NCBI GenBank assembly: GCA_017557625.1
Contig: JAFYYG010000047.1
Coordinates: 18,898 to 82,897 of the forward strand
From: Muribaculaceae bacterium
Lineage (GTDB): Bacteria > Bacteroidota > Bacteroidia > Bacteroidales > Muribaculaceae
DNA: 64,000 nt
Direction of reading: 5' to 3'
The notes below the pieces were generated by a model. The model ran no database searches. It saw only the letters and a list, made by a program, of their open reading frames with translations, and had not been told where the DNA came from. Positions 4,346 through 48,656 of this stretch are shown piece after piece. How positions within the stretch are numbered: the stretch's first letter is position 1; every line of letters begins with the position of its first letter. Made by a program: the position numbers and the translations under genes.

Positions 4346-4377
4346 TTTGCTCATTTTGGGGATTATTGCTAAATTTG
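4346..4377 (+). promoter_or_regulatory. Bacteroidota-type promoter of the 4437 gene
   Basis: TTTG (4346-4349), a 20-nt spacer and TAAATTTG (4370-4377) match the Bacteroidota primary sigma consensus. They predict a start near 4384 and a leader of about 50 nt. Confidence 0.65.
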
Positions 4378-4436: not shown

Positions 4437-5237
4437 ATGAAGAGATTAATTACACTTTTTGGAATGCTCTCACTGCTTTTGATAGGGGCCAACAAAGTAA
4501 TGGCGCAGCGCGCTTCGTTTAATACTGAGTTCCTCCAAGAGGACTACCGTGGTGGTGAGGTTGTAAGAACCAACACTGTCAATGTTGTTTGGAATGACGC
4601 AACTGGCGTGTTGACCATTAACAATTTCTATTCCAACGACTTGGTTAACGACCAAGTTGTGGACCTCGTATTACCCGCTTACGCGACCGAATCATCAAGT
4701 CCTACCACTCTTACTTGGGAGAGCGACACTAAGGCTAATTTCACCTGGCGCGCCAGTTATATGGGCCAGAGCGATATTCTTGCCAATCTGCCCTTCTCTT
4801 ATAGCTCTTTCCGCAACTATAAGAACGCGGTGGTAAGCCGCTTCCAGCATGTGGGAAATCCCGTGAGGATTTATGACCCCGACGCCAACACTATCGACCC
4901 CACCAGCTATTATGCATATTATGGCGGTCAAGACTGCCACGGCACCATCGACCTGGAGGCTGGAACTATCGACATCACCGACCCTTGGGGATGTGTAGTG
5001 GGCAATAACACCTGGAACACCATGAGTGCTACTGTTGTTGTGGAATATTTTGAGAGTTCTCACATGACTCGCACTAGCACAGGTATCACCTCTGTTGACA
5101 CCGATGCTCAGGTTGTTAACACCCGTTACTACAACACCTTGGGCGTTGAGAGCGCACAGCCTTTCAATGGCGTAAACATCATCGTTAAGGAGCTAAGCAA
5201 CGGACAGAAGACAACTACCAAACAAATATTTAAATAA
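4437..5237 (+). CDS. secreted protein with type IX-like C-terminal tail
   Basis: 266 residues, not assigned to a named family. A signal peptide (1-23, ending KVMAQ) precedes a beta-rich domain with FLQEDYRGGEVVRTN near the start and a CHGTIDLEAGTIDITDPWGC segment near 160-180. The C-terminus (about 229-266) has the pattern YYNTLGVESAQPFNGVNI followed by a Lys-rich KQIFK end. This resembles the short Bacteroidales tails thought to direct type IX secretion and surface attachment. The N-terminal domain is clearly paralogous to the first 200 residues of the next gene: both have DYRGGEVVRTN, LTWESDTKA, DCHGTIDLE and DPWGCVV. The ATG is well placed after its promoter. Function unknown; probably an exported surface protein. 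Confidence 0.85.
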   Translation: MKRLITLFGMLSLLLIGANKVMAQRASFNTEFLQEDYRGGEVVRTNTVNVVWNDATGVLTINNFYSNDLVNDQVVDLVLPAYATESSSPTTLTWESDTKANFTWRASYMGQSDILANLPFSYSSFRNYKNAVVSRFQHVGNPVRIYDPDANTIDPTSYYAYYGGQDCHGTIDLEAGTIDITDPWGCVVGNNTWNTMSATVVVEYFESSHMTRTSTGITSVDTDAQVVNTRYYNTLGVESAQPFNGVNIIVKELSNGQKTTTKQIFK

Positions 5238-5246
5238 TATTTAGTG

Positions 5247-5313
5247 ATGGCATGAAGAGGGTGTATCAAATTTCGCAATTCCGCATTTTGGCACACCCTC
5301 TTAATAATGCCAT
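5247..5313. terminator. long hairpin between the two paralogs
   Basis: ATGGCAT (5247-5253) and AAGAGGGTGT (5255-5264) pair with ACACCCTCTT (5293-5302) and ATGCCAT (5307-5313), giving a 17-bp two-part stem. No T-run follows directly. It probably ends or processes the 4437 transcript. A hairpin with the same GAGGGTGT/ACACCCTC core occurs at 59096-59127. Confidence 0.6.
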
Positions 5314-5334
5314 TTTGTAATTAGTAATTTGATA

Positions 5335-7221
5335 ATGAAAAAAATCATTTTTATTTTATTTGCTGCTATGTTATTGGCGGCAAGTAATAGCGTAAATGCT
5401 CAGCCCGAGTCGTTCACTCAGGTTTATCTTCAAAAAGACTACCGCGGCGGTGAGGTTGTGAGAACAAATAAAGTCACCGTTGTTTGGGATGCTGCCACAG
5501 AACAATTAACGTTCAATAATTTCTATTGGAATACCGATGTGGTAAACTCTGCCTCGGCTGTTGTCAATCTGCCGATTAACTATGGTGCAAGTGCCACCAG
5601 TCTTACATGGGAAAGTGACACCAAAGCTTCTTTCACTTGGCGTGTGGCTTATTTAGGAAAGACCACCAAATTTGGTTATACAGGTTATCAACATACATTG
5701 GTTGCTCACATGAAGTATTATCAACAAGGTGTTACTACTATTTATAATGAAAGAGTTTATTACACCTACGATGGCGGTGCCGATTGTCATGGCACTATTG
5801 ATTTGGAAAAAGGTGAAATAACTCTTGATGATCCTTGGGGGTGTGTTGTGGCTCAAGGAACATATTGGTATACTCCTTCAAGTTCGCGTGTTGTTGAGTA
5901 TTTCGAACATTCAGTGTTCACAGCTACTAACCTCGTTGACATCGTTAATGACGGAGAACCAGGTGAGAAATACACTGTTCACGACGACCTTGTGGGCATT
6001 GCCACTGTTGACGGTGTGTTAAGTGCTCCAATGGGGGTGAGCAAAAATCAAAACACATTTGAGATTGATAAGGGTAAATATAAACTTGACTTGGACTTGA
6101 GTGCTAACACCCTCACCGTGTCGCAGAGTGCCGATGCTGTTACAGGATATGTCAATAACGGCAATTATCCCACTTACTATGTTTTGGGAGAAGCGAACGG
6201 TAATAGCTGGAATCCTACCGTAGGTCAGCCCATGGAGACTACCGATGGCGTTCATTACAGTGCTGTGGTGAATTTCTTAGGTGGCAGCAACAATAAGAAC
6301 TATTTCAGCATAGTAAGTGCTTTGGCACAAAATAACGACCAAGGTGGATGGGATTATGTTAACTCTAACCGTTACGGACCTTCAAGCAATGATTATCCAG
6401 TTGCAATGGGCGATGTGCTCTTTGCTAAGGATATGGGCAAGTATAGGAACCCATCTGTGCTGCGTGATGGCCAGGACGACTTTATGGGACGTGTGGCTGC
6501 TGAATATGCTGGCGACATGAGTTTCCACCCCGCCAGCAGTTATGACCAGAGCAACTGGGTAATGCTCACTGGCGTGACCAATGCCAACAACTATGTGGGC
6601 AAGATTATCAAGGGGCGGAGCATTACCGGCACGCTCGTTGACAAAGTTAACCCAACTATCGCTGTGACTTCCAACCCCGCTGCTGGCGAGTCAAGCTCTT
6701 ACACTCCCAACCTCTACATCATGCCGAGCTTCAACGAGGCGTATTATGCTCCCGAGAGCAATTTCTTCTTTGTCGCTCCCAAGGTTCAGGAGTATGCCTA
6801 TATAACATGGGCTTGCTACAACGATGCCGACGGCAAGTTCTATGTGCCCAACGATGGCAACGACAACAATTTGAGTGGCGGCATCGCTGTGAATTGGGAT
6901 TACCTCCCCAACGGCACACCTCAAGATGGTTATGTCTATGAGTTTGATGCCATTCTGCGCAAAGTGCCTGCCGCCAGCAAGGAGGGTGCTCAAAGCACAC
7001 CAAATACTGATGTTTCTTCTGCCGACTATCTCGTTTATCCTTTGCGTCTCTATGATGTACCCACCGCCATAAAGACCGTTGAGACTACAGGCAAGGTAGT
7101 TGACATGAAGTACTACAACTTGATGGGCGTGGAGAGTGCAACACCATTCAACGGCATGAACATTGTTGTAAAGGTTCTCGACAATGGTTCCCGCATCACA
7201 ACTAAGAAACTATTCAAATAA
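5335..7221 (+). CDS. secreted multidomain protein, paralog of the 4437 product, with type IX-like tail
   Basis: 628 residues from ATG 5335; an in-frame TTG at 5329 is possible but less likely. The signal peptide is followed by an N-terminal domain (about 25-200) homologous to the 4437 product. A middle domain around 220-290 is followed by a segment beginning TYYVLGEANGNSW, which looks like the beta-sandwich modules of SusE/F-like outer-membrane proteins. The last 40 residues (YYNLMGVESATPFNGMNI to KKLFK) are nearly the same as the 4437 tail, so the two share both their first domain and their export tail but differ in the middle. It is followed 22 bp later by the 7244 gene, suggesting one transcript. 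Binding ligand and function are unknown. Confidence 0.85.
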   Translation: MKKIIFILFAAMLLAASNSVNAQPESFTQVYLQKDYRGGEVVRTNKVTVVWDAATEQLTFNNFYWNTDVVNSASAVVNLPINYGASATSLTWESDTKASFTWRVAYLGKTTKFGYTGYQHTLVAHMKYYQQGVTTIYNERVYYTYDGGADCHGTIDLEKGEITLDDPWGCVVAQGTYWYTPSSSRVVEYFEHSVFTATNLVDIVNDGEPGEKYTVHDDLVGIATVDGVLSAPMGVSKNQNTFEIDKGKYKLDLDLSANTLTVSQSADAVTGYVNNGNYPTYYVLGEANGNSWNPTVGQPMETTDGVHYSAVVNFLGGSNNKNYFSIVSALAQNNDQGGWDYVNSNRYGPSSNDYPVAMGDVLFAKDMGKYRNPSVLRDGQDDFMGRVAAEYAGDMSFHPASSYDQSNWVMLTGVTNANNYVGKIIKGRSITGTLVDKVNPTIAVTSNPAAGESSSYTPNLYIMPSFNEAYYAPESNFFFVAPKVQEYAYITWACYNDADGKFYVPNDGNDNNLSGGIAVNWDYLPNGTPQDGYVYEFDAILRKVPAASKEGAQSTPNTDVSSADYLVYPLRLYDVPTAIKTVETTGKVVDMKYYNLMGVESATPFNGMNIVVKVLDNGSRITTKKLFK

Positions 7222-7243: not shown

Positions 7244-8962
7244 ATGAAGAAGCATCTTTTTCTAATCTTACTGCTTGCGCTGGCAACGACCAATGTATCG
7301 CGTGCCGCTTCGGCGTTCACAGCCGAGAAGCTGGCAAGCATCAACATCGAGATGGACCGCGACATCCAGACAGGTGGTAACATTGGTTGCAACCGAGTGT
7401 CAATGGCCTATACGGGCGGAACAAGCCGTGTGACGGTGTCTAACTATTTCGCTCAGGGTAGCGACCTCACTTTCAGTGTGAACTGGGGTGGCAACACCAT
7501 CACATTTCTGCCGCAGTGTGTTTACACCTATCAGTATCAAAGCTATACTTGCTACCTCTATGTGGTAGCACAGTCGGTTGTGAACAATAGCGATGTGAAC
7601 ACCGTTCTTAATACCAGTCTTTCGGGACGAGTTAACTCCAGCGGTTTCACTATCTCAACTACATGGAACTTGGCACTGATTTATTATGATCCCGATAGTG
7701 ACAGTTATGTGAACGCTGGTGCGATGTACGACAACGGCATGTTCACCCAGTTCATAGCAAGCAACGCCACTATGACCTACGACGAGGTTGATTTCGACAG
7801 CGATGACCACGTTTATAACACTGGCGAGGTGGCCTCGTTCCCCGTTTACCTCTATTATTATAATAATAAGGTGACGATTTACAACTTCCTCGACTACGGC
7901 TTTATTCCTGAATATACCCCTGGCGAAGGCAAGAACAGCTGGCTGAATCCGAACCAAGAGCTTGCTCAATATAAGGATAACCAGACAGGTGTTACTTATC
8001 ATTTCTGCCTTTACAATTGGGGACCTAACGCCGATGGCTTTGCCGATGTTTATACCAATCAGTATGCACAAGCCGAGGTTACCTCTGAGACTGTGTTTGA
8101 CATGGGTAATATCACCCTTGCCGACATGGTTCGCGACGGCATGGGATTCATTGGCGGCAATGCTAAGATTGTGCTCGAGAGCGGCACACTGCCATATGAG
8201 GAGCCTGTAATTCCCGGCGACGTGAATGCTGACAAGAAGGTGAACGTCACCGACGTGATGTGCGTGGCCAACTATATTGTGGGCATAACTCCCGAGGTTT
8301 TTGTTGAGGAGGCTGCCGATGTGAACGCCAGCGGCTCAATCAACATCACCGACCTTATCGCTATCGCCAATATCGCTGTGGGCAACACTTCAGCACCAGC
8401 CCTGAATGCACCTAAGGCGGCTACCAACGACGTGCTGAGCATTGGCGACTATGACGCGGCAACAGGCACTATTGCTATAACTCTTGACAACGCAACAGCC
8501 TACGCCGGCTTCCAGATGGATGTGACTTTGCCACAAGGTCTCACCTTAGAGAACGCGGAACTCACAGGCCGTGCCGCTTCACACACCTTGATGACTGGTG
8601 TCAACCCCGACGGCTCTATTCGTCTGCTCGGTTTCTCGCTCAACAACAACGAGATAGCTGCTGGCAGCGACGCAATTATCACTCTCAAGGTTAAGGCCAC
8701 ATCAGCACTCGACGCTAACGATGGCATAACTATCAGCGACATCTTCTTCACTCAGCAAAATGAGGTGGAGAGCGTGTTGCCAAATGTGACCACCAATGCA
8801 GTTGTCACAGCCATTTCTGAGATTGGAACTGACGGCGAGGGCGTTAACGTCTATGATATGTGCGGCGTGCTCGTACGTCAAGGCGTGAATCCAGTAGAGG
8901 CAACTCAAGGTCTGCCAACTGGTGTTTATGTAATCAACGGCAAGAAGGTGCTTGTAAAATAA
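7244..8962 (+). CDS. surface protein with dockerin pair, cohesin-like domain and type IX-like tail
   Basis: 572 residues. Signal peptide 1-21 (VSRAA); an unassigned beta-rich domain (about 25-320). A dockerin-like EF-hand pair (about 325-382) has DVNADKKVNVTDV and DVNASGSINITDL. A cohesin-like domain (about 405-520) has YAGFQMDVTLPQGL and GFSLNNNEIAAGSDAIITLK and closely resembles the repeats of the next gene. The C-terminal tail (about 535-572) has YDMCGVLVRQG, then LPTGVYVINGKKVLVK, the type IX-like ending typical of Bacteroidales. The order is unusual because the dockerin is internal. I infer a surface-anchored adaptor: the tail would place it on the outer membrane and the cohesin-like domain could hold dockerin proteins. 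The 8983 gene follows after 20 bp. Domain reading is good; the anchoring role is inference. Confidence 0.82.
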   Translation: MKKHLFLILLLALATTNVSRAASAFTAEKLASINIEMDRDIQTGGNIGCNRVSMAYTGGTSRVTVSNYFAQGSDLTFSVNWGGNTITFLPQCVYTYQYQSYTCYLYVVAQSVVNNSDVNTVLNTSLSGRVNSSGFTISTTWNLALIYYDPDSDSYVNAGAMYDNGMFTQFIASNATMTYDEVDFDSDDHVYNTGEVASFPVYLYYYNNKVTIYNFLDYGFIPEYTPGEGKNSWLNPNQELAQYKDNQTGVTYHFCLYNWGPNADGFADVYTNQYAQAEVTSETVFDMGNITLADMVRDGMGFIGGNAKIVLESGTLPYEEPVIPGDVNADKKVNVTDVMCVANYIVGITPEVFVEEAADVNASGSINITDLIAIANIAVGNTSAPALNAPKAATNDVLSIGDYDAATGTIAITLDNATAYAGFQMDVTLPQGLTLENAELTGRAASHTLMTGVNPDGSIRLLGFSLNNNEIAAGSDAIITLKVKATSALDANDGITISDIFFTQQNEVESVLPNVTTNAVVTAISEIGTDGEGVNVYDMCGVLVRQGVNPVEATQGLPTGVYVINGKKVLVK

Positions 8963-8982: not shown

Positions 8983-11727
8983 ATGAAAAAGTTATTTCAT
9001 ATTTTAATACTATTGTTGGTGGCTGGGGCATTCCAAGCTCATGCGGCTAATGAGTTGCGTATCGACGATTTTTCGGTACAGGCTGGCGACACAATCACTG
9101 TGCCCGTTCTGCTCGATAATCCCGATACCGACTTTGCCGCATTCCAGTTTGACCTCTACATGCCTTCGGGACTTAGCGTCGCCGAGGGAGGATTCAGGCT
9201 GGGTGAGCGTGCCTCGAGTTCGCACCAACTGATGACAAATGTCAACGGCGACCACATCACGGTAATGGCATTCAGCTTCCCAGCCACCAATTTCACTGGA
9301 CAGAGCGGAGCAGTGCTGACCATTGACATAGTGGCTGCCAGCGACTTTGAAGGTCAGGCGGTTATCAACGTGAATAATATCGCGCTCACCACTGCCGATG
9401 CTCATGAACACAGCCACCCCGACTTGGCAGTGACTGTCACGGCGCAGGGGTTCATAGTACTGGGCAACGAATTCTACATGAATGATTTTGAGATTGCCCC
9501 GGGCACCACCATGACAGTGCCTATTGTTCTCGATAACTATGCGAGTGCTATAGCAGGTTTCCAGTTCGACATGTATCTGCCTGAGGGTATCACCACAACC
9601 TCCAGCTCGTTCACCCTTAGCGACCGCAAGTGCGAAACTCACCAATTAGTTGCTAACAAGAACGGCGACCACTGGAGCGTGGTGGCATTTGGTTTCCCTA
9701 CCACCGATTTCAGTGGCGACAGTGGCGATATTATGTATATCGACTTCACGGCAAGCAAGTCGTTTGTAGATAGTGCGTTAATTGAGTTCCGCAACGTGAT
9801 GCTCTCAACGAGCGATGCTCACGAGAGTCCTGTTGAGGACTTTGATGTGACAGTTACTGCCAATGGCGTGTATGTCCCCAGCGACTATCTGACAATTGAA
9901 GACTTCGCCATCAAGCCTGGCAAGACTAAGATAATGCCAGTGCTGCTTGAGAATGAAGTGACACGGTTCTGCACAATTAGTTTTGAGATGACTGTTCCAC
10001 AGGGATTGAGTGTTGACGAGGATGCATTCTCTCTTACCGACCGTGCAGTAGATCATGAACTGAATATCATTGCTCTTGGTGAAAATAGCTATAAGGTAGT
10101 AGTCAGAGGCCGCTATGGTCACTACTTCACTGGCACTTCGGGTGCTGTCCTCAACATTGAGGTTGCTGCCGACCGCACCTTCGAGGGGCAGGCGGTCATC
10201 AATATGAGCAATGTGCGTCTCATTGAGCCAAACAGCGATTACACAACTATCGATGACTTTGACGTTACCGTGACTGCCGACGGTGTGTATGTACCTGAGA
10301 ATCTCTTCTATATCAACGATTTTGAGATTACTCCAGGTCAAACCGTGCAAATGCCGGTGATTATGGACAACGAGGCGACTCCTGTTGCCGCCTTCCAGCT
10401 CTCGTTGGAGATGCCCGAAGGTCTCACAGCCCATGGCGTTACTCTTAGCGACCGCAAGAGTGAGACTCACCAGGTGGTTACTAATGCGAATGGTAACACC
10501 ATTTCGATTGCCGCGTTCAGCTTCCCGCCAACCAATTTCACCGGCAACTCGGGCGAGGTGATGTATATCAGCGTTACTGCCAGTCGCGATTTCGAGGGTT
10601 CTGCCACAATCCACGTGAGTGATGTGGTGCTTACCAGTGCCGATGAGGTGGAGACACTTATTGAAGACTTCGATGTTAATGTCACCGCCAACGGCGTTTA
10701 TGTACCAAGCGACAATCTCACTATCAGCGACTTCGCCATCGCTCCAGGACGCTCTACTCAAGTGCCTGTGGTGCTCACCAACGAGACTGTTGTGGTCAAT
10801 GCCGTGGAGTTTGACCTTGAGGTTCCTCAGGAGCTAACTGTGGCTAACCAGGTAAGACTTGGCGAGCGCGCTAACGGCCATCAGGTGACCATTGCCCAGC
10901 AAGGTGATGTGCTGCACGTTGCTGAGTTCTGCACTCCCCCTACCGCCTTCGTTGGAGACGATGGCAATATCATGTATCTTAAAGTGAATGCCGCAAGGGA
11001 GTTTGCGGGCTCTACTGTCATTAACGTCAAGAACGTGGTGCTCAAGACCGATGGAGAAGACATCTATATTGACGACTTTGTTGTAGTTGTCACCGCGAGT
11101 GGTCCATACGTGCCAGTTGACACCCTCTATATTGATGACTTCAGCATTGAGCCAGGCAAGACGTTAAGCGTGCCAGTGGTGATGGACAATGAAATCACAA
11201 GCATCTCAGCTGTGCAGTTTGACCTAACTATGCCACAGGAACTCTCCATTCCGAGAGCCGACAATGGCGACTACAGTATGGCACTCACCGACCGCATGAG
11301 CGACAACCACTACCTCATTGCCAATCCCAAGAACAATGGCGATATTCGCGTTGTGGCAATCAGCTTCCCGCCAACAGATTTCACTGGTGACAGTGGCCCA
11401 ATCATGAACATCGATATGGAGGCTGATGAGAATTTCACTGGAACCACACAATTCACAGTGAAGAATGTAGTGATGACTACCGCCGACGCACAGACCGAGA
11501 TCAGCATTCCCGACTTTGTCGTGGTGGTGACTGCAATCAAAGGCAGCGACCACATATTTGGCGACGTGAACTGCGACGGCTATGTGACCACCACCGACAT
11601 TACCGCACTCTACAACTATATGCTCAACGGTGACGAGACCTATCTTGCCACCAGCGATGTTAACGGCGACGGTTCAATAACCAGCGCCGACGTGACAGCA
11701 GTTTACAATATCCTTTTGGGCAATTAG
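8983..11727 (+). CDS. putative scaffoldin: six tandem cohesin-like domains plus C-terminal dockerin
   Basis: 914 residues. The signal peptide (1-22, ends QAHAA) leads straight into six tandem modules of about 135-140 residues. Each opens with a variant of IDDFSIEPGKTLSVPVVMDN, continues with AFQFDLYMPSGLSV, SDRKSETHQ and FSFPPTNFTGNSGEVMYI, and ends with an ASxxFEGxxxINVxNVxL strand. This is the usual cohesin layout: GD/GKT opening, a V-P-V strand, then fQFDL followed by hydrophobic strands. The C-terminus (about 860-914) is a paired EF-hand dockerin with DVNCDGYVTTTDITALYN and DVNGDGSITSADVTAVYN. Unlike its operon neighbours it has no type IX-like tail. Multiple cohesins plus one dockerin is the architecture of a primary scaffoldin. 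Cohesin-like domains also occur outside cellulosomes, so actual dockerin binding is unproven. Confidence 0.85.
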   Translation: MKKLFHILILLLVAGAFQAHAANELRIDDFSVQAGDTITVPVLLDNPDTDFAAFQFDLYMPSGLSVAEGGFRLGERASSSHQLMTNVNGDHITVMAFSFPATNFTGQSGAVLTIDIVAASDFEGQAVINVNNIALTTADAHEHSHPDLAVTVTAQGFIVLGNEFYMNDFEIAPGTTMTVPIVLDNYASAIAGFQFDMYLPEGITTTSSSFTLSDRKCETHQLVANKNGDHWSVVAFGFPTTDFSGDSGDIMYIDFTASKSFVDSALIEFRNVMLSTSDAHESPVEDFDVTVTANGVYVPSDYLTIEDFAIKPGKTKIMPVLLENEVTRFCTISFEMTVPQGLSVDEDAFSLTDRAVDHELNIIALGENSYKVVVRGRYGHYFTGTSGAVLNIEVAADRTFEGQAVINMSNVRLIEPNSDYTTIDDFDVTVTADGVYVPENLFYINDFEITPGQTVQMPVIMDNEATPVAAFQLSLEMPEGLTAHGVTLSDRKSETHQVVTNANGNTISIAAFSFPPTNFTGNSGEVMYISVTASRDFEGSATIHVSDVVLTSADEVETLIEDFDVNVTANGVYVPSDNLTISDFAIAPGRSTQVPVVLTNETVVVNAVEFDLEVPQELTVANQVRLGERANGHQVTIAQQGDVLHVAEFCTPPTAFVGDDGNIMYLKVNAAREFAGSTVINVKNVVLKTDGEDIYIDDFVVVVTASGPYVPVDTLYIDDFSIEPGKTLSVPVVMDNEITSISAVQFDLTMPQELSIPRADNGDYSMALTDRMSDNHYLIANPKNNGDIRVVAISFPPTDFTGDSGPIMNIDMEADENFTGTTQFTVKNVVMTTADAQTEISIPDFVVVVTAIKGSDHIFGDVNCDGYVTTTDITALYNYMLNGDETYLATSDVNGDGSITSADVTAVYNILLGN
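9052..11541 (+). repeat. six tandem about 415-bp cohesin-like coding repeats
   Basis: Units begin near 9052, 9471, 9886, 10306, 10714 and 11125, each starting with codons for an I-x-D-F-x-I-x-P-G pattern. The third unit (9886-10305) is the most diverged: it lacks the AFQFDL and FSFPPT forms and has FCTISFEM and GRYGHYF instead. Repeats 1, 2, 4 and 6 are closest to each other, which suggests expansion by duplication. Confidence 0.85.
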
Positions 11728-19320: not shown

Positions 19321-22300
19321 ATGAGCATGAACATTACTCGTTTATCATGGTTGCGTGGCCTAATGGCTGCTCTTGCGATTTTTCTCGCATATAACGCAGC
19401 ACACGCTCTCAAGTTTGAGGAGCTGGGCTACAACTGGAGCACTTCAGGCACCAATGCAACCTTAGTGAAGTACACTATCAGCTCTCATCAGGAGAATGGT
19501 GTTACTATCAAGGACTCGCTCTTCTACACTGGCGATGAGAACAACATCGTCAACATTCCAGAGACTTTTGACCACGATGGCATCACCTACACCGTTGTTG
19601 CTATTGATGCCAACGCATTCGTCAACTGCCGCGACATCAAGGAGATTCACCTCCCCGCCACTTGCGTGAGCTATGGCAACAACTGCTTCCGCGGCTGTAC
19701 AAGTCTTACTAACTACCCTGTTACCGAAACGGCAACAAAGATGGGTAGCGGTACAGTTTGGGAGTGCCCCAATGTAACTGAGGCATTCATCCCTGGCGGT
19801 GTGACAAGCACATTGATTTCCAACCAATTTGCCAATAGCGGTATTCGCAAACTCACTATCATGGCAAGCGGCACACCTCTCAAGTTCAACAGGAACGCAT
19901 TTGGTGCCACTACTGCCGACCTCCCACCACTTGACACCCTCATTATTCTCCGTCAAATGAACACTGGAGACTATGTGAGCAACCTACAACCATTCCACAA
20001 CTATCCTACTATCAAGCAACTTGTTTTGGGTGACAGTATAACTGATATCGCACAAAGCTGTTTTATGGGATGTTCCGGTATTGAAGAGATTATATTTAAA
20101 GACGGCAACGTAATTGCCACTATTGGTTCCGACGCTTTCCAGGGTTGCAACCACCTCAAGACCATTGAGCTGCCAGCAACCATCACTTCGGTGCCTATGA
20201 ACCTGTTCCTTGGCTGCTCACGACTTGAGTCGGTGAGCTTCCTCGGCGACATCACTTCTATTCAGCAGAGCGCATTCAACGGTTGTGCAGCGCTGCACAG
20301 CTTCACCTTCCCAACCACTCTTAAGACCATTGGAGCTTCGGCATTCTACAATAGCGGTCTAACTGGCGTGATTGAGATTCCAGAGGGTGTCACCTCTATT
20401 GGTGCTACAGCATTTGCTGGTTCTAACGCCATCACTGGCATCAAGCTGCCATCAACCATCGCAACAATCGGCAATGCCGCCTTCGGTCCTATCGAGAGCC
20501 TTGCCAGCATTGAACTTGGTGCTGGTAACAGTGCTTTCACTCTCAATAATGGTGTATTGACCAATGCCGCTGGAACTCGTCTGCTCGTGACTGCTCATGA
20601 GGGAAATATTGGCACTATCCTCAACAACCCCACTATCGAGACAATCGACAACTATGGTATGGCATTCTCGCCATATACCGACCTTGACCTCCCAGCTCTC
20701 AACGAGATTGGCAACTACGGCTTCTACCGCGCTGCCATCAAGGAGTTTACCTACAAGGCTGGCATGACAGTTAATCCTAACGCATTCCTCGAGAGCGACC
20801 TTGAGATTCTCAACACCGAGGAAGGTGCTCGCGAGATTCCTCAGAACCTGTGTGCCAACTGTACTAAGCTTCACACTGTGAACATCTCAAGCACCGTAAC
20901 CAATATCTTCCAAGATGCTTTTGCCGGATGTACAGCCCTTGAGCACATGGAGCTGGGCTCTCACATCAACTACATGGAGAAAGGTGCCGTGCCTTCTACT
21001 ATCCAGAGCCTGCGAGTGCTCAACGTCACTCCTCCAGTGCTTGGTGCTGGCGTCTTTGAACCCACCCAGAGCAATGTGCTGTGTGAAGTTGCCGCAACTG
21101 CTGTTGGCGACTACGAGGCTGCTCCACAATGGCAATACCTCAACATCCAGGGCGACCCATCAATCACAGGCGAGGGCACATCCCTTGGCTGTCCAAGTGG
21201 TCTCTACTTCGCAACCAAGGACTGCCGTCTCATGTATCGCGACAACGAAGGCAACATCATTGACACTGAGTTCAACACAGGTGAACATGCTTTCAACATC
21301 CAGAGCTACAAGAACCGCATCTACGTAGCAAGCGCTGGTCACTACTTCCAGTATCAAGGTGCCGACGCTCAAGCCAGCGGCGGTGACGGCGAGCTCTTCT
21401 ACGTGAACAACACCGACGGAATGTGGTATCGTGTTACTGTACTCAACAACGTAGGATACAAGGCATTTGAGGATCCATTCTCGATGTATATCTCGGCTAT
21501 CGACAACAAGATTTACATCGCCGACCGCAACGTTGGCATCCACGAGATGAGCGCCGATACCGTAGGCCTCTATGGTACTCAGCCCTTCTTCATGCAGAAC
21601 AACTGGCTGCCTTACTACAACGACAAGATTACTTATGGTGCCATTGGTGCAGGCATGACAATGCGCGCTACCGACGTGATTGCTGCCGACGGTACTACAC
21701 GCAACAACGTTTACTGGGTTGCCAAGAAGTTCAACGGACAAGGTATCTTCCGCTTCGACAAGAGCATGCTCTACAGCGACGGCACAGGTGCAGACCACCC
21801 CGACAAGCAGTTGCCAGTTTACCTGAACAACGTGCAAATGACATCATTCTACCTTGATGAGGAGAACGGCTACCTCTACTTCTTCGTGCAGAAAGACAAT
21901 GTTGGTGGATCTGTACCAGGTCTCTACCGCATTTCTCTCGCTACTCTCAATGCTAAACAAGAAATGGCTACAGTAGCTGAAGATGCAGTTCTTATCGACA
22001 ACTCTCCTATCCTGCTCGAAGGCTCTGGCGACGAGATTACCGGCATCACCCAAATCACTGGCGACGGAGAGAACATCTATTGGGCTTACATCTCATGTGG
22101 TGAAGGAACAGCGGTTCCTGACATGGTGGCTTATGACGCTGCTAACCCATTGCACCAGACTGGTATCAAGATGATCAGCGCTAAACCTGAGAACGCAACG
22201 GTAGTACCTCCTATCACTTACGCTGTTGAAGGCATCGCCGCCTATGGTGTTACCACTGCCAAGTTTGAGGCACCTGTAGTAGTTATTCGTGGCGACGTTA

Positions 22301-22461
22301 ACGGTGATGGCGAGGTTACTGCTGCCGACGTAACATTGCTCTACAACATTATGCTGAGCGATGATTGGGACGGCGCAGTTTATCCTGATCAGAATGGTGA
22401 TGGCGAGGTTACCTCTGCCGATGTAACTGCTGTTTACAATGTCCTTCTTGGAATTAATTAA
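19321..22461 (+). CDS. BspA-like leucine-rich repeat surface protein with C-terminal dockerin
   Basis: 1046 residues. Signal peptide 1-29 (LAYNAAHA). Residues about 55-570 form LRR_5/BspA-type repeats of about 23 residues with the pattern xxIGxxAFxxCxxLxxIxLPxxVTSI, for example TIGSDAFQGCNHLKTIELP and SIQQSAFNGCAALHSFTFP. A following domain (about 620-970), starting SGLYFATKDCRLMYRDNEG, resembles a propeller-like read-out domain. The C-terminus (about 991-1046) is a dockerin pair with DVNGDGEVTAADVTLLYN and DQNGDGEVTSADVTAVYN. BspA proteins bind host or bacterial surface partners. Here the LRR array would be cargo for a cohesin-like receptor. ATG 19321 and 19327 are equally possible. Confidence 0.87.
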   Translation: MSMNITRLSWLRGLMAALAIFLAYNAAHALKFEELGYNWSTSGTNATLVKYTISSHQENGVTIKDSLFYTGDENNIVNIPETFDHDGITYTVVAIDANAFVNCRDIKEIHLPATCVSYGNNCFRGCTSLTNYPVTETATKMGSGTVWECPNVTEAFIPGGVTSTLISNQFANSGIRKLTIMASGTPLKFNRNAFGATTADLPPLDTLIILRQMNTGDYVSNLQPFHNYPTIKQLVLGDSITDIAQSCFMGCSGIEEIIFKDGNVIATIGSDAFQGCNHLKTIELPATITSVPMNLFLGCSRLESVSFLGDITSIQQSAFNGCAALHSFTFPTTLKTIGASAFYNSGLTGVIEIPEGVTSIGATAFAGSNAITGIKLPSTIATIGNAAFGPIESLASIELGAGNSAFTLNNGVLTNAAGTRLLVTAHEGNIGTILNNPTIETIDNYGMAFSPYTDLDLPALNEIGNYGFYRAAIKEFTYKAGMTVNPNAFLESDLEILNTEEGAREIPQNLCANCTKLHTVNISSTVTNIFQDAFAGCTALEHMELGSHINYMEKGAVPSTIQSLRVLNVTPPVLGAGVFEPTQSNVLCEVAATAVGDYEAAPQWQYLNIQGDPSITGEGTSLGCPSGLYFATKDCRLMYRDNEGNIIDTEFNTGEHAFNIQSYKNRIYVASAGHYFQYQGADAQASGGDGELFYVNNTDGMWYRVTVLNNVGYKAFEDPFSMYISAIDNKIYIADRNVGIHEMSADTVGLYGTQPFFMQNNWLPYYNDKITYGAIGAGMTMRATDVIAADGTTRNNVYWVAKKFNGQGIFRFDKSMLYSDGTGADHPDKQLPVYLNNVQMTSFYLDEENGYLYFFVQKDNVGGSVPGLYRISLATLNAKQEMATVAEDAVLIDNSPILLEGSGDEITGITQITGDGENIYWAYISCGEGTAVPDMVAYDAANPLHQTGIKMISAKPENATVVPPITYAVEGIAAYGVTTAKFEAPVVVIRGDVNGDGEVTAADVTLLYNIMLSDDWDGAVYPDQNGDGEVTSADVTAVYNVLLGIN

Positions 22462-22749: not shown

Positions 22750-24963
22750 ATGAAAAAATTATCTTTATTTCTGATGGCATTTCTTACCGCCATCTTGGCG
22801 AGCGCAGAGCCCGCCAACCCCACACCCATCAACGTGACGCAGCCCGATGGCTCCACGCTACAGCTCATTTTGGTGGGTGACGAGTTCTATCACTTCAACA
22901 CTACTATCGATGGATACACCATCGTCAACATTAATGGCACATGGGAATATGCCACCAAAGACGGCGAGAGATTGGTGTCGTCGGGAGTGATGGCGCATAA
23001 CCCCGCCTCGCGCGACACCAAGGAGATGCAACTGGTGGCCTCACTCGATAAGCGACTTGTTGACAAGGCTGCGACTACCCAAGCACGCGAGAATCGCGCT
23101 ACTCGCGACAAGAAGAACCAACAAAACCGCGATAATAGAGAGCCAGTAGTTGACTACAGCGCCTTCCGTGGTCTTATTGTCCTTATCAATTTCAACGATA
23201 GGCAGTTCTTGATGGACAACCCAAACGATTTCTACAACCAGCTGTGCAATACCGAGAACTACACAGGATTCTACCATAATGGACGTTTCCAGAGATGCAC
23301 TGGCAGTGTGCGAGACTATTACTACGACAACTCAATGGGACAATTCGACCCGAATTTTGATATCGCAGGTCCTGTAAACCTTAACTACTCCTGCTATGAA
23401 GGCAACGACAAAGCGAGAGAGATTTTCAAGGCAGCCCTGGATTCCATTGACGACCAAGTGGATTTCTCGCTCTATGATGCCGACAACGACGGCGAAATCG
23501 ACATGGTGTTCTTCTTAGTGGCGGGATATGCCTCAAGCTACAGCGGAAACAACAGCGGCTACCTGTGGCCACACATGAGTTACCTGATTGACTGGTGGTC
23601 GGGGTGGCCTCCACAACCATATATTTATGACGGCAAAAGAATGGGAACCTACGCCTCCTCGTGCGAGATTTATGGTTGGGAATCTCAACATTCCACTATG
23701 CCTAACGCTATCGGCACCATCTGTCATGAGTTCGGACACGTGCTGGGACTCCCTGACCTTTACGACACCGACTACAGTGACAGCGGTGGCGAGAGCAACC
23801 ATCCCGGCGATTGGGACGTGATGGCTGGAGGAAGTTACTCTAACTACGGACGCACACCAGTGGGCTACAGCCTGTGGGAACGTATGGAATTAGGTTTTAC
23901 TGACACACCTGAAGAACTCATATTAGGCGAAAAGACTCTCTCGGCATTGAACGAGAGCAACACGGGCTATATGATGCAGTCGCCCAGCGAATTTGAGTTT
24001 TTCCTCTTTGAGAATCGACAGCCCAACAAGTGGGATGCCGCTCTGCCAGGACATGGATTGGTGATTACACGTGTCGATTACAGTAACGAAGAAGTGTGGT
24101 GGAGCAACGAAGTGAACTGCAATCCCTCACACAACTATTACGAGCTCATTCGCTCTTCAGGTGCTGGCTCTGGAGAGGTTCCCTTCCCAGGCTCGAGAAA
24201 TGTGACACTTATCAACTCATCCACCTACCCAGCACTCGTAACTTGGGCTGAAGAGCCTTGTCAGTTCGGATTGAATAATATCAGCGAGGACAACAGCATA
24301 ATCACCTTTAATGTTGTCAATGATGTTCCGCCATTAAATATTGTCGAAGACTTTGAGCTAATGCAAACGGGACTTCCCGCTAATGCCACCAATGTGCAAG
24401 GCAACTTCGCCACCTGGAACTTCCCAAAAGCCGATGTGGTGGATTATAACGGTCAGCACGCCGCTTCGCTGCAAATGCCCGGAGGCATCGCAATGAACAG
24501 CGACATCGATGTGCAGGCCATCAAAATTTCTCTTAACGCCGTCAACACATCAACCACAGCATCAAAGATCCAGCTCTACTATTCTACCGATGAGGGAGCG
24601 ACATGGACCTCTATAGGCACCGAGTCGGTGAAAGCTAATTCTGATGAGGCCATATCCTGGCGCCTCAATCTTTCCAAACAACCCATGCGATTTAAAATAA
24701 ATCGCACTTCGGGTGCCAAGAATGTGAATCTCATAATCGACAACATAACCATACATTATATTGGCAAAGATAATATTCCTGGCGACGTGAACGGGGATGG
24801 CGTGGTGACAGCAGCCGACGTGACAGCACTCTACGACTTCCTCCTCAACGGAGACATCACGCACCTGATCAACGGCGACCAAAATGGTGACCAAAATATC
24901 ACCGCCAGCGACGTGACAGCAGTTTATGACGTTTTGCTAGGAATAAATGAAGGCATTCAATAA
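22750..24963 (+). CDS. secreted M6-family metalloprotease with C-terminal dockerin
   Basis: 737 residues. A signal peptide (1-18, LASAEP) and propeptide-like region precede an M6 peptidase domain. The zinc motif CHEFGHVLGLPDLYDTD (HExxHxxGxxD) is near residues 325-342, with DWDVMAGGSYSNYGRTPVG downstream as the Met-turn region. A jelly-roll-like domain about 545-670 starts with a VEDFE-type strand (IVEDFELMQTGLP). The C-terminus, about 678-735, is a dockerin pair with DVNGDGVVTAADVTALYD and DQNGDQNITASDVTAVYD. M6 (immune inhibitor A-like) enzymes degrade host or dietary proteins outside the cell. Zinc ligands are intact, so it is probably active. The dockerin suggests assembly onto a cohesin-like scaffold. 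Confidence 0.92.
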   Translation: MKKLSLFLMAFLTAILASAEPANPTPINVTQPDGSTLQLILVGDEFYHFNTTIDGYTIVNINGTWEYATKDGERLVSSGVMAHNPASRDTKEMQLVASLDKRLVDKAATTQARENRATRDKKNQQNRDNREPVVDYSAFRGLIVLINFNDRQFLMDNPNDFYNQLCNTENYTGFYHNGRFQRCTGSVRDYYYDNSMGQFDPNFDIAGPVNLNYSCYEGNDKAREIFKAALDSIDDQVDFSLYDADNDGEIDMVFFLVAGYASSYSGNNSGYLWPHMSYLIDWWSGWPPQPYIYDGKRMGTYASSCEIYGWESQHSTMPNAIGTICHEFGHVLGLPDLYDTDYSDSGGESNHPGDWDVMAGGSYSNYGRTPVGYSLWERMELGFTDTPEELILGEKTLSALNESNTGYMMQSPSEFEFFLFENRQPNKWDAALPGHGLVITRVDYSNEEVWWSNEVNCNPSHNYYELIRSSGAGSGEVPFPGSRNVTLINSSTYPALVTWAEEPCQFGLNNISEDNSIITFNVVNDVPPLNIVEDFELMQTGLPANATNVQGNFATWNFPKADVVDYNGQHAASLQMPGGIAMNSDIDVQAIKISLNAVNTSTTASKIQLYYSTDEGATWTSIGTESVKANSDEAISWRLNLSKQPMRFKINRTSGAKNVNLIIDNITIHYIGKDNIPGDVNGDGVVTAADVTALYDFLLNGDITHLINGDQNGDQNITASDVTAVYDVLLGINEGIQ

Positions 24964-26817: not shown

Positions 26818-26852
26818 TCCCTACAATGTCGAATCTTTCAATCATCATCACA

Positions 26853-29279
26853 ATGAAAAAGATATTACTTACCCTCGCATTGCTGACGTGCTGCACTTGC
26901 ACAATTACTGCCGGTATCAACATTGGTGGCACTGTCTATAGCGCCGACACTATCATGCACCGACAAGTGGGACCGGGAATATACAACACTATCATCCGCA
27001 TCCCCGACTATCCGCTAAATGTCTATCTGCTCGAGGCCGACATGACCAACCCCTACAACCGAGTGGAGACGACCATAGGCTACAACACTCTGGGACGCAC
27101 AGAATTGCTCACCAACGCCTACCACCGCAACCGCACCGCTACCCGTCGTCCCATCGCGGCGTGCAATGCCAACTTCTGGTGCGTGACAGGTAATGGTTCG
27201 CCCACGATGGACTTCGAACTTGGCGACCCCTTTGGCGCTGTAGTGCGCAACGATAGCGTGTATCTCAACACCGAGACCAACGTCGACGCCTGGAACGGCG
27301 GCCCCAGCCGTACTGGTGCTTGCGCCATAAGTCAAGACAAAACGCTCTACTTCGGGCACTTCAACTGCGGAGGAACACTCTCCTCGCCAAAACTCGCTAC
27401 CGCAGCACCATTGAACACGGTGAACCGCCGCAACCTGCCTCACACCGCAGTGCTATGGACTCCCGCTTTCAGCCGCACACGTGAATTTGAAACCAATTGG
27501 ATTGACTACAACGAGACTGGCGTTGCCGATGCCGACAACTTCTACCTCACCTTTAATGAAGGTAGCCGCTGGCTCGTGAACCAGGATATGCAATTCACCA
27601 TCGCCAAGATCGTGAGAAACGCCGACCGTCAGAAGCTTGGCGACTATGATGCCTGCATTACCGCCACGGGCTTGATGAAAGACTACCTCGCCGCTCTTGC
27701 CGAGGGCGACGTGATCACCATCAACCATGGATGGACCTACAACGAGGAGACACAATTCGCGCCATTTATCGAGAATATGGTTGAGGGCAATGCTCCCGTG
27801 ATGCATAACGGCGAACTCACTGGCCGCAACAACGACGAGAACTACAACTCGATGGTGTATAGCCGCACAGCCTACGGCTGCGACGCCACCGGCAAGAAAC
27901 TCTATATGATTGTCATCGACAAATCCACGAGCAAACTCTACGGCACAAGCGCTGGCTGCTCAACCACTGTGATGTGCCAAATTCTAAAAGACCTGTTCCC
28001 CGATGTTTGCGAGGTAGTGAACATGGATGCAGGCGGCTCGGCCGAGATGATGGTTGACGGACGCATCATCAACACCACCACCGAGAGCAACCCACGCGCC
28101 GTGGCGTGCGGATGGATGCTCGAAACCGAGGCTCCCGAGGACAACGAGATAGCGTCCATACAGTTCTACGACTTCCGCGCCGACCTGCCCATATACTCCT
28201 CTTATACCCCTCGCATTGTGGGATTTAACCAATATGGCGAAGTAGTGAACGACAATGTCACTGGCTTCACGCTCGAGTGCGATGAAATTCTCGGTTACAC
28301 CGAGGGTTCTACTTTGGTTCTCGGCGGCAATGTCACTATAGCCAACCTCACCGCAACCTACAACGGTATGACAGCCACCGCTCCCGTCAAAACCCTCGCC
28401 GCGCAGCCATCAATCACCATGAAGCCTATGATTCTTGTTGACAACCGCGAGTTCCCTATTGAGGTGAGCGCGACAATCCTCGACAAGACGTTCTACTACG
28501 ACGGCACAAAATTGGGGTGGGAAGTTGAGGACCCGAGCATCGCAACTATCGTTGACGGCAAGGTTAGAGGCCTCAAAAACGGCATTACCACATTCAACTG
28601 CATCATCGGCGACTTTGTTGACACCGACAGCATCACTGTGGAAATCAGCGACCGGGAATATATCGAGCAAACATGGGACGGATGGACCTTTAAAGGCGCT
28701 GGCGCCAAGGACTTCGAGCTTGACGAGAATGGAAACCTCTCGTTCTCCTACAGCAGCAACCGTGCCCCCTACATCCAAATGTCAAAAGACATCACCTTCT
28801 ACAGCCTCCCCGACAGCATATCGCTCACTTTCACCAGCACACTGCCTATGCAATACATCCAGATTGACGTGCGGAACACCGTTTTCAACAAACTCAACTA
28901 CTTGGAATTTGGCAGGGACACAGGCTTTGAGGCAAACACAGAATACACCCTCAATTTCGACCTTGACGAATTGGGTGGCATCGACAACCTGCTAACCTAT
29001 CCCCTGACTCTGCACACCATCAAGTTCACTCCCGTGAAGAGCAATTTTGGCGACCACGTCATCCATCTCAAGTCACTAAAAGCCCACTACCCCATCACCT
29101 CGGCTTTGCCGGGTGACGTGAACGGTGATGGAAACGTGACAGCAGCTGACGTGACAGCACTCTACGACTTCATGCTCAACAACGACACCACAAATCTTAT
29201 CAACGGCGACCAAAACGGAGATGGAGACATAACCGCCAGCGACATCACCGAGGTATATAACATTCTATTAGGAGATTAA
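26853..29279 (+). CDS. secreted phosphodiester glycosidase (NAGPA-like) with C-terminal dockerin
   Basis: 808 residues from ATG 26853, chosen because MKKILLTLALLTCC starts a proper signal peptide; ATG 26826 adds nine residues before it. The NAGPA/DUF2233 domain spans about 70-440, with ACNANFWCVTGNGSPTMDF, TGACAISQDKTLYFG, and the hallmark VNMDAGGSAEMMVDGRIIN followed by PRAVACGWML. Members hydrolyse or transfer sugar phosphodiesters such as uncapping of N-acetylglucosamine-1-phosphodiester. Ig-like (about 450-610) and jelly-roll-like (about 620-745) modules follow, then a dockerin pair (about 754-808) with DVNGDGNVTAADVTALYD and DQNGDGDITASDITEVYN. Likely acts on extracellular glycans; substrate unknown. 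Confidence 0.88.
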   Translation: MKKILLTLALLTCCTCTITAGINIGGTVYSADTIMHRQVGPGIYNTIIRIPDYPLNVYLLEADMTNPYNRVETTIGYNTLGRTELLTNAYHRNRTATRRPIAACNANFWCVTGNGSPTMDFELGDPFGAVVRNDSVYLNTETNVDAWNGGPSRTGACAISQDKTLYFGHFNCGGTLSSPKLATAAPLNTVNRRNLPHTAVLWTPAFSRTREFETNWIDYNETGVADADNFYLTFNEGSRWLVNQDMQFTIAKIVRNADRQKLGDYDACITATGLMKDYLAALAEGDVITINHGWTYNEETQFAPFIENMVEGNAPVMHNGELTGRNNDENYNSMVYSRTAYGCDATGKKLYMIVIDKSTSKLYGTSAGCSTTVMCQILKDLFPDVCEVVNMDAGGSAEMMVDGRIINTTTESNPRAVACGWMLETEAPEDNEIASIQFYDFRADLPIYSSYTPRIVGFNQYGEVVNDNVTGFTLECDEILGYTEGSTLVLGGNVTIANLTATYNGMTATAPVKTLAAQPSITMKPMILVDNREFPIEVSATILDKTFYYDGTKLGWEVEDPSIATIVDGKVRGLKNGITTFNCIIGDFVDTDSITVEISDREYIEQTWDGWTFKGAGAKDFELDENGNLSFSYSSNRAPYIQMSKDITFYSLPDSISLTFTSTLPMQYIQIDVRNTVFNKLNYLEFGRDTGFEANTEYTLNFDLDELGGIDNLLTYPLTLHTIKFTPVKSNFGDHVIHLKSLKAHYPITSALPGDVNGDGNVTAADVTALYDFMLNNDTTNLINGDQNGDGDITASDITEVYNILLGD

Positions 29280-47805: not shown

Positions 47806-48648
47806 ATGAAAAGAAAATTATTCATTGCGACAGCAGTTTTGCTGTCATGCGGCAGCCTATTGGCGCAGCCCACCTCGTGGAGCGAGCCACAGCTGCTAAT
47901 CAAAGGGGAGCAGGGGCTGATGGCTCCCATCTGGTCGCCCGACGGCTCGCAAATCGCTGTCACTGGCGACAACTTCGTTGGAATCTGGGTGGCACAAGCC
48001 GACGGCACTGACTTGCATCAAGTGTCGAAAGCTCCAGGTGCCGGATACCAGATGCGCTGGGAGAGTAATCAGGAAATCCTGAGCACTCCCTATTCTATCG
48101 AAAACCAAAAGCGCATGACACGCATTGAGCGCGTGAATGCCGCCACAGGAAAGATTCAGGAAGTGGCACCTGCCACTCGCGACCTCAAGCGGTCAACTGT
48201 AATGGGAGCAACCAATGTTTTCCAGACCATGCTCGACGAGCCACAGAACGCCACTGCCAAAATTGCTGGATTGAGCGAGTATGCAGGCAATTGGGTAATC
48301 AACCCCGCACTCTCGCCCGATGGCACAAAAATCGCCTTCCAGATTGTCACAAAGGGTCTCTTTGTGTGCAATGCCGACGGCACTGAACTTGTGAGCCTGG
48401 GTAAAGGCTCCCACGCCACATGGCTCCCCGACAGCCATAACCTGATGATGACGCTCATAGCCGATGACGGCCACCGTTTCATTGGCAGCGACATTTACTG
48501 CGTGAACATTGACAGCGGCAACGCAATCAATATCACCCCTAATAGCGAGACTATACCTATCACCATCACTGTTTCGCCCGATGGCACTAAACTTGCCTTC
48601 GACAACGACACCGACGGTGCCATCTACATTATTAACCTCAATTATTGA
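47806..48648 (+). CDS. TolB-like / WD40-like beta-propeller, exported
   Basis: 280 residues. Signal peptide (1-20, SLLAQP). The repeated blade motif is WSPDGSQIAVTGD, LSPDGTKIAFQIV and VSPDGTKLAFDND (PD40 pattern), with IYCVNIDSGNAINITPNS between. About four to five blades fit; the family includes TolB and periplasmic prolyl-peptidase-like read-out domains. It is 8 bp upstream of the amidase gene, so the two are translationally close and cotranscribed. A sensing or substrate-binding role at the cell wall is plausible but not shown. Confidence 0.85.
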   Translation: MKRKLFIATAVLLSCGSLLAQPTSWSEPQLLIKGEQGLMAPIWSPDGSQIAVTGDNFVGIWVAQADGTDLHQVSKAPGAGYQMRWESNQEILSTPYSIENQKRMTRIERVNAATGKIQEVAPATRDLKRSTVMGATNVFQTMLDEPQNATAKIAGLSEYAGNWVINPALSPDGTKIAFQIVTKGLFVCNADGTELVSLGKGSHATWLPDSHNLMMTLIADDGHRFIGSDIYCVNIDSGNAINITPNSETIPITITVSPDGTKLAFDNDTDGAIYIINLNY

Positions 48649-48656
48649 TAGCAGCT

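What the first reader, a model, noticed from the sequence alone, without database searches (positions are those of the whole stretch)
8983..11727. A six-cohesin-like, dockerin-ended scaffoldin-like protein in a gut Bacteroidales
Directly seen: a signal peptide, six tandem modules with the cohesin strand layout and one C-terminal paired EF-hand dockerin. Known: this is the architecture of primary scaffoldins in Clostridia and Ruminococcus cellulosomes. Inference: it could collect dockerin proteins outside the cell. Cellulosomes have not been established in this group as far as I know. The protein has no type IX-like tail, so it would need the dockerin for anchoring.
Basis: partly seen in the sequence, partly recalled or inferred. 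Interest (0 to 1): 0.85.

Follow-up and report, generated by a model that had tools for sequence, protein, structure and literature searches.

The report
Six-cohesin scaffold in a Bacteroidales
A gut-type Bacteroidales bacterium encodes a protein with six docking sites that probably gathers secreted proteins bearing the matching plug, of which its genome has over a hundred, and those that can be recognised include leucine-rich-repeat proteins, proteases and starch enzymes but no cellulose-digesting enzyme.

Summary
In detail: ORF 8983-11727 has a signal peptide, six tandem cohesin modules, one C-terminal type I dockerin and no type IX sorting hit. A profile of 92 related modules finds solved cohesins first in the PDB. 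The gene ends a four-gene cassette present in 6 of 6 named loci; the gene before it encodes a dockerin-cohesin protein with a T9SS-like tail below the cut-off, a candidate surface anchor.

The genome has at least 128 dockerin ORFs. Only 4 of 123 scanned ends show a T9SS sorting domain. Recognised partners are leucine-rich-repeat families, C10/S8/M6 proteases, CotH, amylase, sulfatase-factor domains. No cellulase family was listed and GH9 is absent, though two proteins match the Cthe_2159 carbohydrate-binding family.

Strongest sign of real binding: in 19 of 19 genomes the dockerin on the cohesin protein has the residue class most cargo dockerins have at a canonical recognition position, while synonymous sites among 117 dockerins of this genome are near saturation.

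So: cellulosome-like architecture in a diderm phylum with largely non-cellulolytic cargo.

The parts
4346..4377 (+). Bacteroidota-type promoter match (TTTG-N20-TAAATTTG; consensus recalled), 91 nt before the first cassette gene
   Evidence: 15 matches in the window, 1.28 expected, 0 of 100 shuffles reach 15; upstream match in 5 of 7 loci, none inside the cassette in 7 of 7
4437..5237 (+). cassette gene 1, 266 aa secreted protein of unknown fold; tail T9SS-like by eye only
   Evidence: no family; no PDB relative
5329..7221 (+). cassette gene 2 (start 5329 TTG or 5335 ATG), N-terminal domain related to gene 1; tail T9SS-like by eye only
7244..8962 (+). cassette gene 3, candidate surface anchor: unknown N-domain, divergent dockerin, cohesin, T9SS-like tail
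8213..8386 (+). divergent (N-type) dockerin of the anchor candidate
8450..8812 (+). cohesin module of the anchor candidate
   Evidence: E 3.2e-13, contig coordinates 27347-27709
8780..8938 (+). T9SS type A sorting-domain-like tail, 17.1 bits, below the 23-bit cut-off
8983..11727 (+). six-cohesin, dockerin-ended scaffoldin-like protein, 914 aa
8983..9045 (+). signal peptide (residues 1-21, by eye)
   Evidence: read from sequence
9052..9453 (+). cohesin 1
9460..9876 (+). cohesin 2
9880..10302 (+). cohesin 3 (among the least conserved between orthologues)
10306..10716 (+). cohesin 4
10720..11127 (+). cohesin 5
11131..11547 (+). cohesin 6
11560..11724 (+). type I dockerin, cargo type, Y at recognition position 17 of both repeats
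19321..22461 (+). candidate cargo: BspA-type LRR protein with C-terminal dockerin
22750..24963 (+). candidate cargo: M6 peptidase with C-terminal dockerin
26826..29279 (+). candidate cargo: phosphodiester glycosidase (NAGPA) with C-terminal dockerin
43991..45208 (-). candidate cargo: no other Pfam domain, C-terminal dockerin
48645..51215 (+). candidate cargo: Amidase_3 with C-terminal dockerin

Best explanation
The protein is a surface scaffoldin of a cohesin-dockerin system in a diderm Bacteroidales. Its six cohesins hold dockerin-tagged secreted proteins (leucine-rich-repeat proteins, proteases, starch- and other glycan-active enzymes), and its own dockerin docks on the cohesin of a partner with a T9SS-like tail encoded just upstream, which tethers the assembly to the outer surface. 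Shown by sequence: the modules, the conserved cassette, over 100 dockerin ORFs in the genome, co-varying recognition residues. Inferred: that binding occurs, which cohesin binds which dockerin, the surface location, and how proteins without a T9SS signal cross the outer membrane.
For: Cohesin and dockerin families. At least 128 dockerin ORFs; the dockerin lies within 12 aa of the C-terminus in 96 of 125 with their 3' end; a signal peptide by a simple rule in 109 of 129 records, 16 of the other 20 being cut at the 5' end. T9SS tail in 4 of 123, while the SprA translocon is present. Cassette in 6 of 6 named loci. Across the genus 32 of 42 complete cohesin(n)-dockerin ORFs directly follow, at 1-170 nt on the same strand, an ORF with a cohesin; 29 of the 32 end T9SS-like by eye, 3 do not (loci picked by best hits). 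Recognition residues match within genomes: mean identity to own cargo 0.640 against 0.516 permuted, p 5e-5 (the floor of 20,000 permutations), also within each dialect class. The four most discriminating columns are positions 17 and 10 of both repeats (positions counted by eye), canonical recognition positions (PMC3413522, passages). Synonymous sites among this genome's dockerins near saturation (0.40 against 0.33 expected), so the likeness is kept by selection more than by recent copying.
Against: The six-cohesin gene is in only 9 of 101 genus genomes (a four-cohesin form in one more), and these ten are not richer in dockerins (median 159.5 against 179 first-look candidates), so it cannot be the only receptor. 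Its dockerin equals the cargo type, so self-binding is possible. A mirror-tree test did not pair adaptor dockerin with adaptor cohesin (r 0.16, p 0.14). The tail of the anchor candidate is below the NCBIfam cut-off. By whole-dockerin identity the own genome ranked first in only 8 of 19. No structure model or binding data.
Confidence: 0.6

Rival explanations
1. The dockerin is a genus-wide retention tag read by some other cohesin, for instance on the T9SS-tailed proteins; the six-cohesin protein is one tagged client, and its cohesins bind something else, such as the divergent dockerin of the anchor.
For: Dockerins abound in genomes without the six-cohesin gene. The scaffoldin dockerin is cargo-type. 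The anchor-type dockerin co-varies with the adaptor cohesin (partial r 0.27) and with the first anchor cohesin (partial r 0.38) more than with the last anchor cohesin (0.03-0.04) (16 loci).
Against: This genome has four proteins with a dockerin ahead of a cohesin, and in one of them (C36, 676 aa) that dockerin looks cargo-like, so divergent dockerins are few, which gives little reason for six cohesins. The correlations may only reflect shared descent of one locus.
Confidence: 0.2
2. Head-to-tail fibre: the scaffoldin dockerin binds cohesins of other copies, giving chains or a coat.
For: Its dockerin has the same type as cargo and near-symmetric repeats.
Against: Does not explain the dockerin cargo nor the linked cohesin gene with a T9SS-like tail.
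Confidence: 0.1
3. Non-binding repeats: Ig-like stalk modules of an adhesin that only resemble cohesins.
For: Weak single-module Pfam scores and almost only noise with the six-module PDB profile.
Against: Wider profile finds cohesins first; 35 of 92 modules match PF00963 and no other family matches more than one; co-varying recognition residues.
Confidence: 0.08
4. A true cellulosome for cellulose degradation, as suggested for Sodaliphilus on dockerin counts (PMC10872696, passages).
For: Scaffoldin layout and many dockerins; two N-terminal-dockerin proteins match Cthe_2159 (E 4.4e-45), a family that one paper calls cellulose-binding (PMC7480376, passages).
Against: No GH9 (controls ring), no GH48 match (no control rang), no cellulase family in the cargo lists. 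GH5 was not searched genome-wide, and at E between 1e-8 or 1e-7 and 1e-4 up to ten one-member families of groups A3 and A4 were not shown.
Confidence: 0.02

Closest known systems
Cellulosomal primary and adaptor scaffoldins (CipA, ScaB and kin) of Clostridia and Ruminococcus
   Same: secreted tandem cohesins, dockerin, many dockerin proteins in the genome
   Different: diderm phylum; dockerin of cargo type; no CBM hit; anchor candidate has a T9SS-like tail instead of SLH or sortase anchor (those recalled); no cellulase seen in the cargo
Amylosome of Ruminococcus bromii and the predicted Limousia mucinolysome
   Same: cohesin-dockerin assemblies with non-cellulose cargo (PMC9112005: search listing only; PMC12997984: passages)
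   Different: both Gram-positive; here LRR families are the commonest recognised cargo
Ruminococcus side components
   Same: dockerin proteins with LRR and peptidase domains (PMC5301203 and PMC7480376, passages; LRR_5-dockerin proteins were detected by proteomics in the latter)
   Different: there beside many cellulases; here no cellulase family listed
T9SS type A cargo of Bacteroidota (BspA, C10 proteases such as interpain A; recalled)
   Same: same kinds of passenger domains
   Different: here 119 of 123 dockerin proteins scanned show no such sorting domain
Bacteroidetes bins with cohesins in camel rumen (PMC6071333, passages)
   Same: two to four tandem cohesins in six bins, among them #136, which the paper also names as a Bacteroidetes bin rich in dockerins
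   Different: no gene cassette, anchor, cargo or recognition analysis in the passages seen

Membership tests
Cohesin module (PF00963) | score over the family cut-off and relation to solved cohesins | tested here: met
   module 1 alone passes the Pfam cut-off singly
Type I dockerin (PF00404) | paired calcium-loop repeats over the cut-off | tested here: met
   nearest PDB chains are mostly cellulosomal enzymes or their dockerins
Scaffoldin | secreted, non-catalytic, several cohesins | tested here: met
   secretion from the signal peptide only
Scaffoldin | calcium-dependent binding of dockerin proteins | not testable with these tools
   indirect support only:
Cellulosome | dockerin-borne cellulases and hemicellulases | tested here: not met
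   lists complete at 1e-4 for A2 and A5, at 0.01 for ten others, at 1e-7 and 1e-8 for A3 and A4; genome 88% complete; GH53 (two members) and two Cthe_2159 proteins are present; one weak GH113 match, 3e-5
Cellulosome | cellulose-binding module on the scaffoldin | tested here: not met
   no such Pfam hit
Cellulosome | distinct dockerin types for enzymes and for anchoring | tested here: not met
   scaffoldin dockerin is of cargo type; known systems vary
T9SS type A cargo | C-terminal sorting domain TIGR04183 on the scaffoldin | tested here: not met
T9SS type A cargo | sorting domain on the upstream anchor candidate | tested here: inconclusive
   17.1 bits against a cut-off of 23; of two like proteins at C36 one has 26.9, one 20.8

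The most novel reading that the evidence does not exclude
In this genus a dockerin has replaced the T9SS sorting domain as the general display tag: over 100 secreted proteins per genome are shown on the surface by plugging into a few cohesin carriers with T9SS tails and into multi-cohesin scaffoldins, perhaps travelling through the T9SS pore as passengers of the carrier. Each species uses its own recognition dialect, so that tags and sockets of neighbours do not mix.
Probability: 0.25. Interest if true: 0.92.

Novelty: new variant of a known kind. Interest (0 to 1): 0.78.

Why it matters
One 2026 paper states that no cellulosome system is described outside Firmicutes, found 78 Bacteroidetes MAGs with both cohesins and dockerins and called for study (PMC12997984, passages). 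Here is a concrete gene cassette, an anchor candidate, a cargo inventory and a recognition code that can be tested with purified modules. It also argues against reading many dockerins as cellulose degradation, as one goat study did for Sodaliphilus (PMC10872696, passages), if this genus is that one.

Tried and rejected
Structure prediction: switched off, so no fold model and no co-fold. Profile of six modules against the PDB: noise (best a G-protein beta fusion at 1.1e-4), one cohesin at E 0.37. Correlation of cohesin and dockerin counts across 101 genomes: rho 0.59, 0.35 after genome size; the dockerin figure is the first-look candidate count because the scored set was capped at 57 per genome; six-cohesin genomes are not richer. 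Mirror-tree test of partner pairing on 16 loci: not decisive. Phage and plasmid collections: no match. PDB search for the N-domains of cassette genes 1-2 and 3: nothing. Per-module dN/dS: the script failed after the whole-gene values. A first extraction of orthologues took wrong reading frames and was replaced. Rejected: contamination (orthologous cassette in 6 of 6 named loci); plain cellulosome (no cellulases listed); homogenisation of dockerins mainly by recent copying.

Rows dropped or capped before counts: own-genome dockerin search scored 150 of 225 candidates, so 134 is a lower bound; one gene is counted twice in the 129 records where two fetched stretches overlap, and one dockerin protein (C10 protease at C72) was missed by my profile and found by Pfam; two short fragments were left out of the 125 before the tail count (123 scanned); the cargo group of 85 holds the scaffoldin's own dockerin once; short dockerins were left out; 92 of 145 cluster representatives made the wide cohesin profile.
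Full report
OBSERVATION. ORF 8983-11727 (+) encodes 914 aa with a signal peptide, six repeats of about 135 aa and a C-terminal dockerin. Pfam gives Cohesin at 57.3 bits (cut-off 24.1; four stretches) and Dockerin_1 at residues 860-912. The six repeats are 39-48% identical to the first. Singly, only module 1 passes the Pfam cut-off. A profile of the six alone hits the PDB with noise and one cohesin at E 0.37. A profile of 92 related modules (of 145 representatives) gives, in order, 5n5p 2.2e-6 (two partial stretches), 5m2o 3.2e-5, 5aoz 5e-5, 6kgc 6e-5, 6kg8 6.7e-5, 2xdh 4.3e-4, four NagJ chains 0.002-0.003 (their module being cohesin-like is recalled) and the scaffoldin 3l8q 0.044; the twelfth hit is unrelated. 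Of the 92 modules 35 match PF00963 at E 0.01 or better and no other Pfam family matches more than one. I take the repeats as cohesins.

CONSERVATION. In 101 genomes of the genus, the full six-module protein is in nine (this one and eight others, 72-83% identical) and a four-module form in one. Each module position is its own clade across the species put in the tree, so the array predates them. Whole-gene dN is 0.11-0.17 and dS 0.95-2.5 to five orthologues. Six named loci were found in genome contigs, titled uncultured Bacteroidales, Prevotellaceae or Muribaculaceae; two titles name water buffalo and red deer. Their proteins are identical to those of six of the ten genomes above, so they add names, not spread. 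The genus may be Sodaliphilus (Muribaculaceae): a goat study reports 63-107 dockerins in its MAGs (PMC10872696, passages). I did not test the name.

CASSETTE. In 6 of 6 named loci the gene is preceded by the same three co-directional genes as in the window: 4437-5237, 5329-7221 and 7244-8962. Window gaps are 97, 22 and 20 nt (with the 5335 start). A Bacteroidota-type promoter match lies 91 nt before the first gene; an upstream match is present in 5 of 7 loci and none lies inside the cassette in 7 of 7. ORF 7244-8962 has an unknown N-domain, a divergent dockerin, a cohesin (E 3.2e-13) and a T9SS-like tail at 17.1 bits, below the 23-bit cut-off. Of two LRR-dockerin-cohesin proteins at contig C36, one has the tail at 26.9 bits, over the cut-off, the other at 20.8. 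The genome encodes the SprA translocon (2716 bits). The other two cassette proteins have no Pfam or NCBIfam match and their profile no PDB relative.

A RECURRING GENE PAIR. Over the loci I held, picked by best hits and so not a random sample, 32 of 42 complete cohesin(n)-dockerin ORFs directly follow, at 1-170 nt and on the same strand, an ORF with a cohesin: 16 cohesin-dockerin-cohesin, 9 dockerin-cohesin, 7 with only cohesins called; 29 of the 32 end T9SS-like by eye. The window's own upstream neighbour was not counted there, because it was listed under another source. Seven of the ten without a partner are multi-cohesin proteins without a held neighbour of this kind. Cohesins of these positions form separate groups in a tree whose deep forks are weak. 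The window protein looks like a six-fold version of the common one-cohesin adaptor.

CARGO. The genome has 134 dockerin matches among 150 scored of 225 candidates, in 129 ORF records, that is 128 genes, plus a C10 protease found by Pfam. In 96 of 125 with their 3' end the dockerin is within 12 aa of the C-terminus; 22 have it near the N-terminus. Only 4 of 123 show a T9SS sorting domain at E 0.1. Pfam on 34, 32, 28, 22 and 10 proteins, one of them in two groups, shows BspA-type and other LRR families, DUF285, CotH (3 and 6 members), Peptidase_C10 (1 and 5), S8 (1 and 3), M6 (2 and 1), alpha-amylase (1, 2 and 1) and CBM26, GHL10, GH53 (1 and 1), GH18 (1), Amidase_3, FGE-sulfatase (6 and 1). Some members match little beyond the dockerin. 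Against my reading, two match the Cthe_2159 carbohydrate-binding family. No cellulase family appears in the lists shown; for the 32- and 28-member groups two and eight weak families at E 1e-4 were not shown, and the lists are complete only at 1e-7 and 1e-8. GH9 is absent from the genome with controls ringing; GH48 gave no match, but no control rang. GH5 was not searched genome-wide. The genome is 88% complete.

RECOGNITION DIALECTS. The scaffoldin dockerin has mean identity 0.64 to C-terminal cargo dockerins, like cargo to cargo (0.63); the anchor-type dockerin is apart (0.36-0.38). Comparing genomes, cargo dockerins fall in dialects: Y at position 17 of both repeats with A/T/S at position 10, or I (V) at 17 with I/V at 10; these four columns discriminate best. 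Positions 10, 11, 17, 18 and 22 are the putative recognition positions of cellulosomal dockerins (PMC3413522, passages). In 11 genomes (exploratory) and in 8 more fetched as a test after reading their adaptor dockerins (for one, G038, one search had already hinted at the answer), the dockerin on the cohesin protein has the dialect of most of its own genome's cargo: 19 of 19 at position 17, counting I and V together. Mean identity to own cargo is 0.640 against 0.516 permuted (p 5e-5, the floor), and 0.675 against 0.608 and 0.609 against 0.539 within the two classes. Limits: 1-5 cargo dockerins per genome except 84 in this one, chosen as top Pfam hits; the genomes are related, so events are fewer than 19; one of three cargo dockerins of G098 is of the other class; own genome ranked first in only 8 of 19 and eighth in one (G083). 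Among 117 dockerins of this genome, amino-acid identity is 0.61 but four-fold third positions agree in 0.40 against 0.33 by chance (6642 pairs; 0.59 in the 82 pairs over 90% identical). So the common surface is kept mainly by selection, as expected if all dockerins must fit shared cohesins; this was tested in one genome only.

MECHANISM. Most likely the six cohesins load dockerin cargo and the terminal dockerin plugs into a T9SS-tailed cohesin protein on the surface. The pairing is not settled: the scaffoldin dockerin could bind its own cohesins, and genomes without this gene have as many dockerins, so other cohesins (1-22 modules in 97 of 101 genomes) must serve them. How cargo without a sorting domain leaves the periplasm is open.

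PRIOR ART. Papers seen as passages: PMC12997984 says no cellulosome system is described outside Firmicutes and flags 78 Bacteroidetes MAGs. PMC11557425 finds 33 cellulosome species, all but two from four Gram-positive genera, and a two-cohesin protein in a PVC bacterium. PMC6071333 reports cohesins in Bacteroidetes, with two to four in tandem in six bins, one of which (#136) it also names as a dockerin-rich Bacteroidetes bin; tandem cohesins in this phylum were thus seen before in passing. PMC5830445 reports 15 rumen genomes with multi-cohesin proteins, up to six, 9 of them near R. flavefaciens. PMC5831590 states that no cohesins or dockerins were found in its Bacteroidetes genome. The listings of searches for Muribaculaceae or Sodaliphilus with dockerin, Sodaliphilus with type IX secretion, and dockerin with type IX secretion showed no description of this system. 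Outside the genus, cohesin modules occur at E 1e-8 in 19 further of 393 sampled Bacteroidales genomes and in none of the five same-family genomes listed.

VERDICT. A real scaffoldin-like protein in a genus-wide cohesin-dockerin set: a new variant of a known kind. Function is inferred from sequence only.

Noticed in passing
L156:7317-11465 (own genome, contig C72): A C10 protease with inhibitor, Ig-like, dockerin, cohesin and tail-like end is followed at 78 nt by a cohesin-Ig-half-dockerin gene: the same gene-pair plan as in the window.
   Followed up: partly
L142:2528-6638 (contig C36): Two tandem LRR-dockerin-cohesin proteins with T9SS-like tails, one over the cut-off: further surface anchor candidates.
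   Followed up: partly
L106, L105, L109, L138, L104 (C-terminal ends): Several proteins end in a single calcium repeat, a half dockerin with the cargo consensus.
   Followed up: no
L037, L038, L043, L046, L059: Another family of about 660-690 aa with two or three divergent cohesins and a dockerin, without a tailed cohesin gene beside it in the held stretches.
   Followed up: no
L220, L221, L222, L225 (other Bacteroidales families): Tandem or paired cohesin proteins occur outside the genus.
   Followed up: no
window 4437-7221: Two secreted proteins sharing an N-terminal domain with no relative found, encoded with the scaffoldin in 6 of 6 named loci.
   Followed up: partly
alignment A5 (22 N-terminal dockerin proteins): N-terminal dockerins sit on six FGE-sulfatase-factor proteins, two Cthe_2159 proteins, and one member each matching SusD and SusE/F families.
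   Followed up: no
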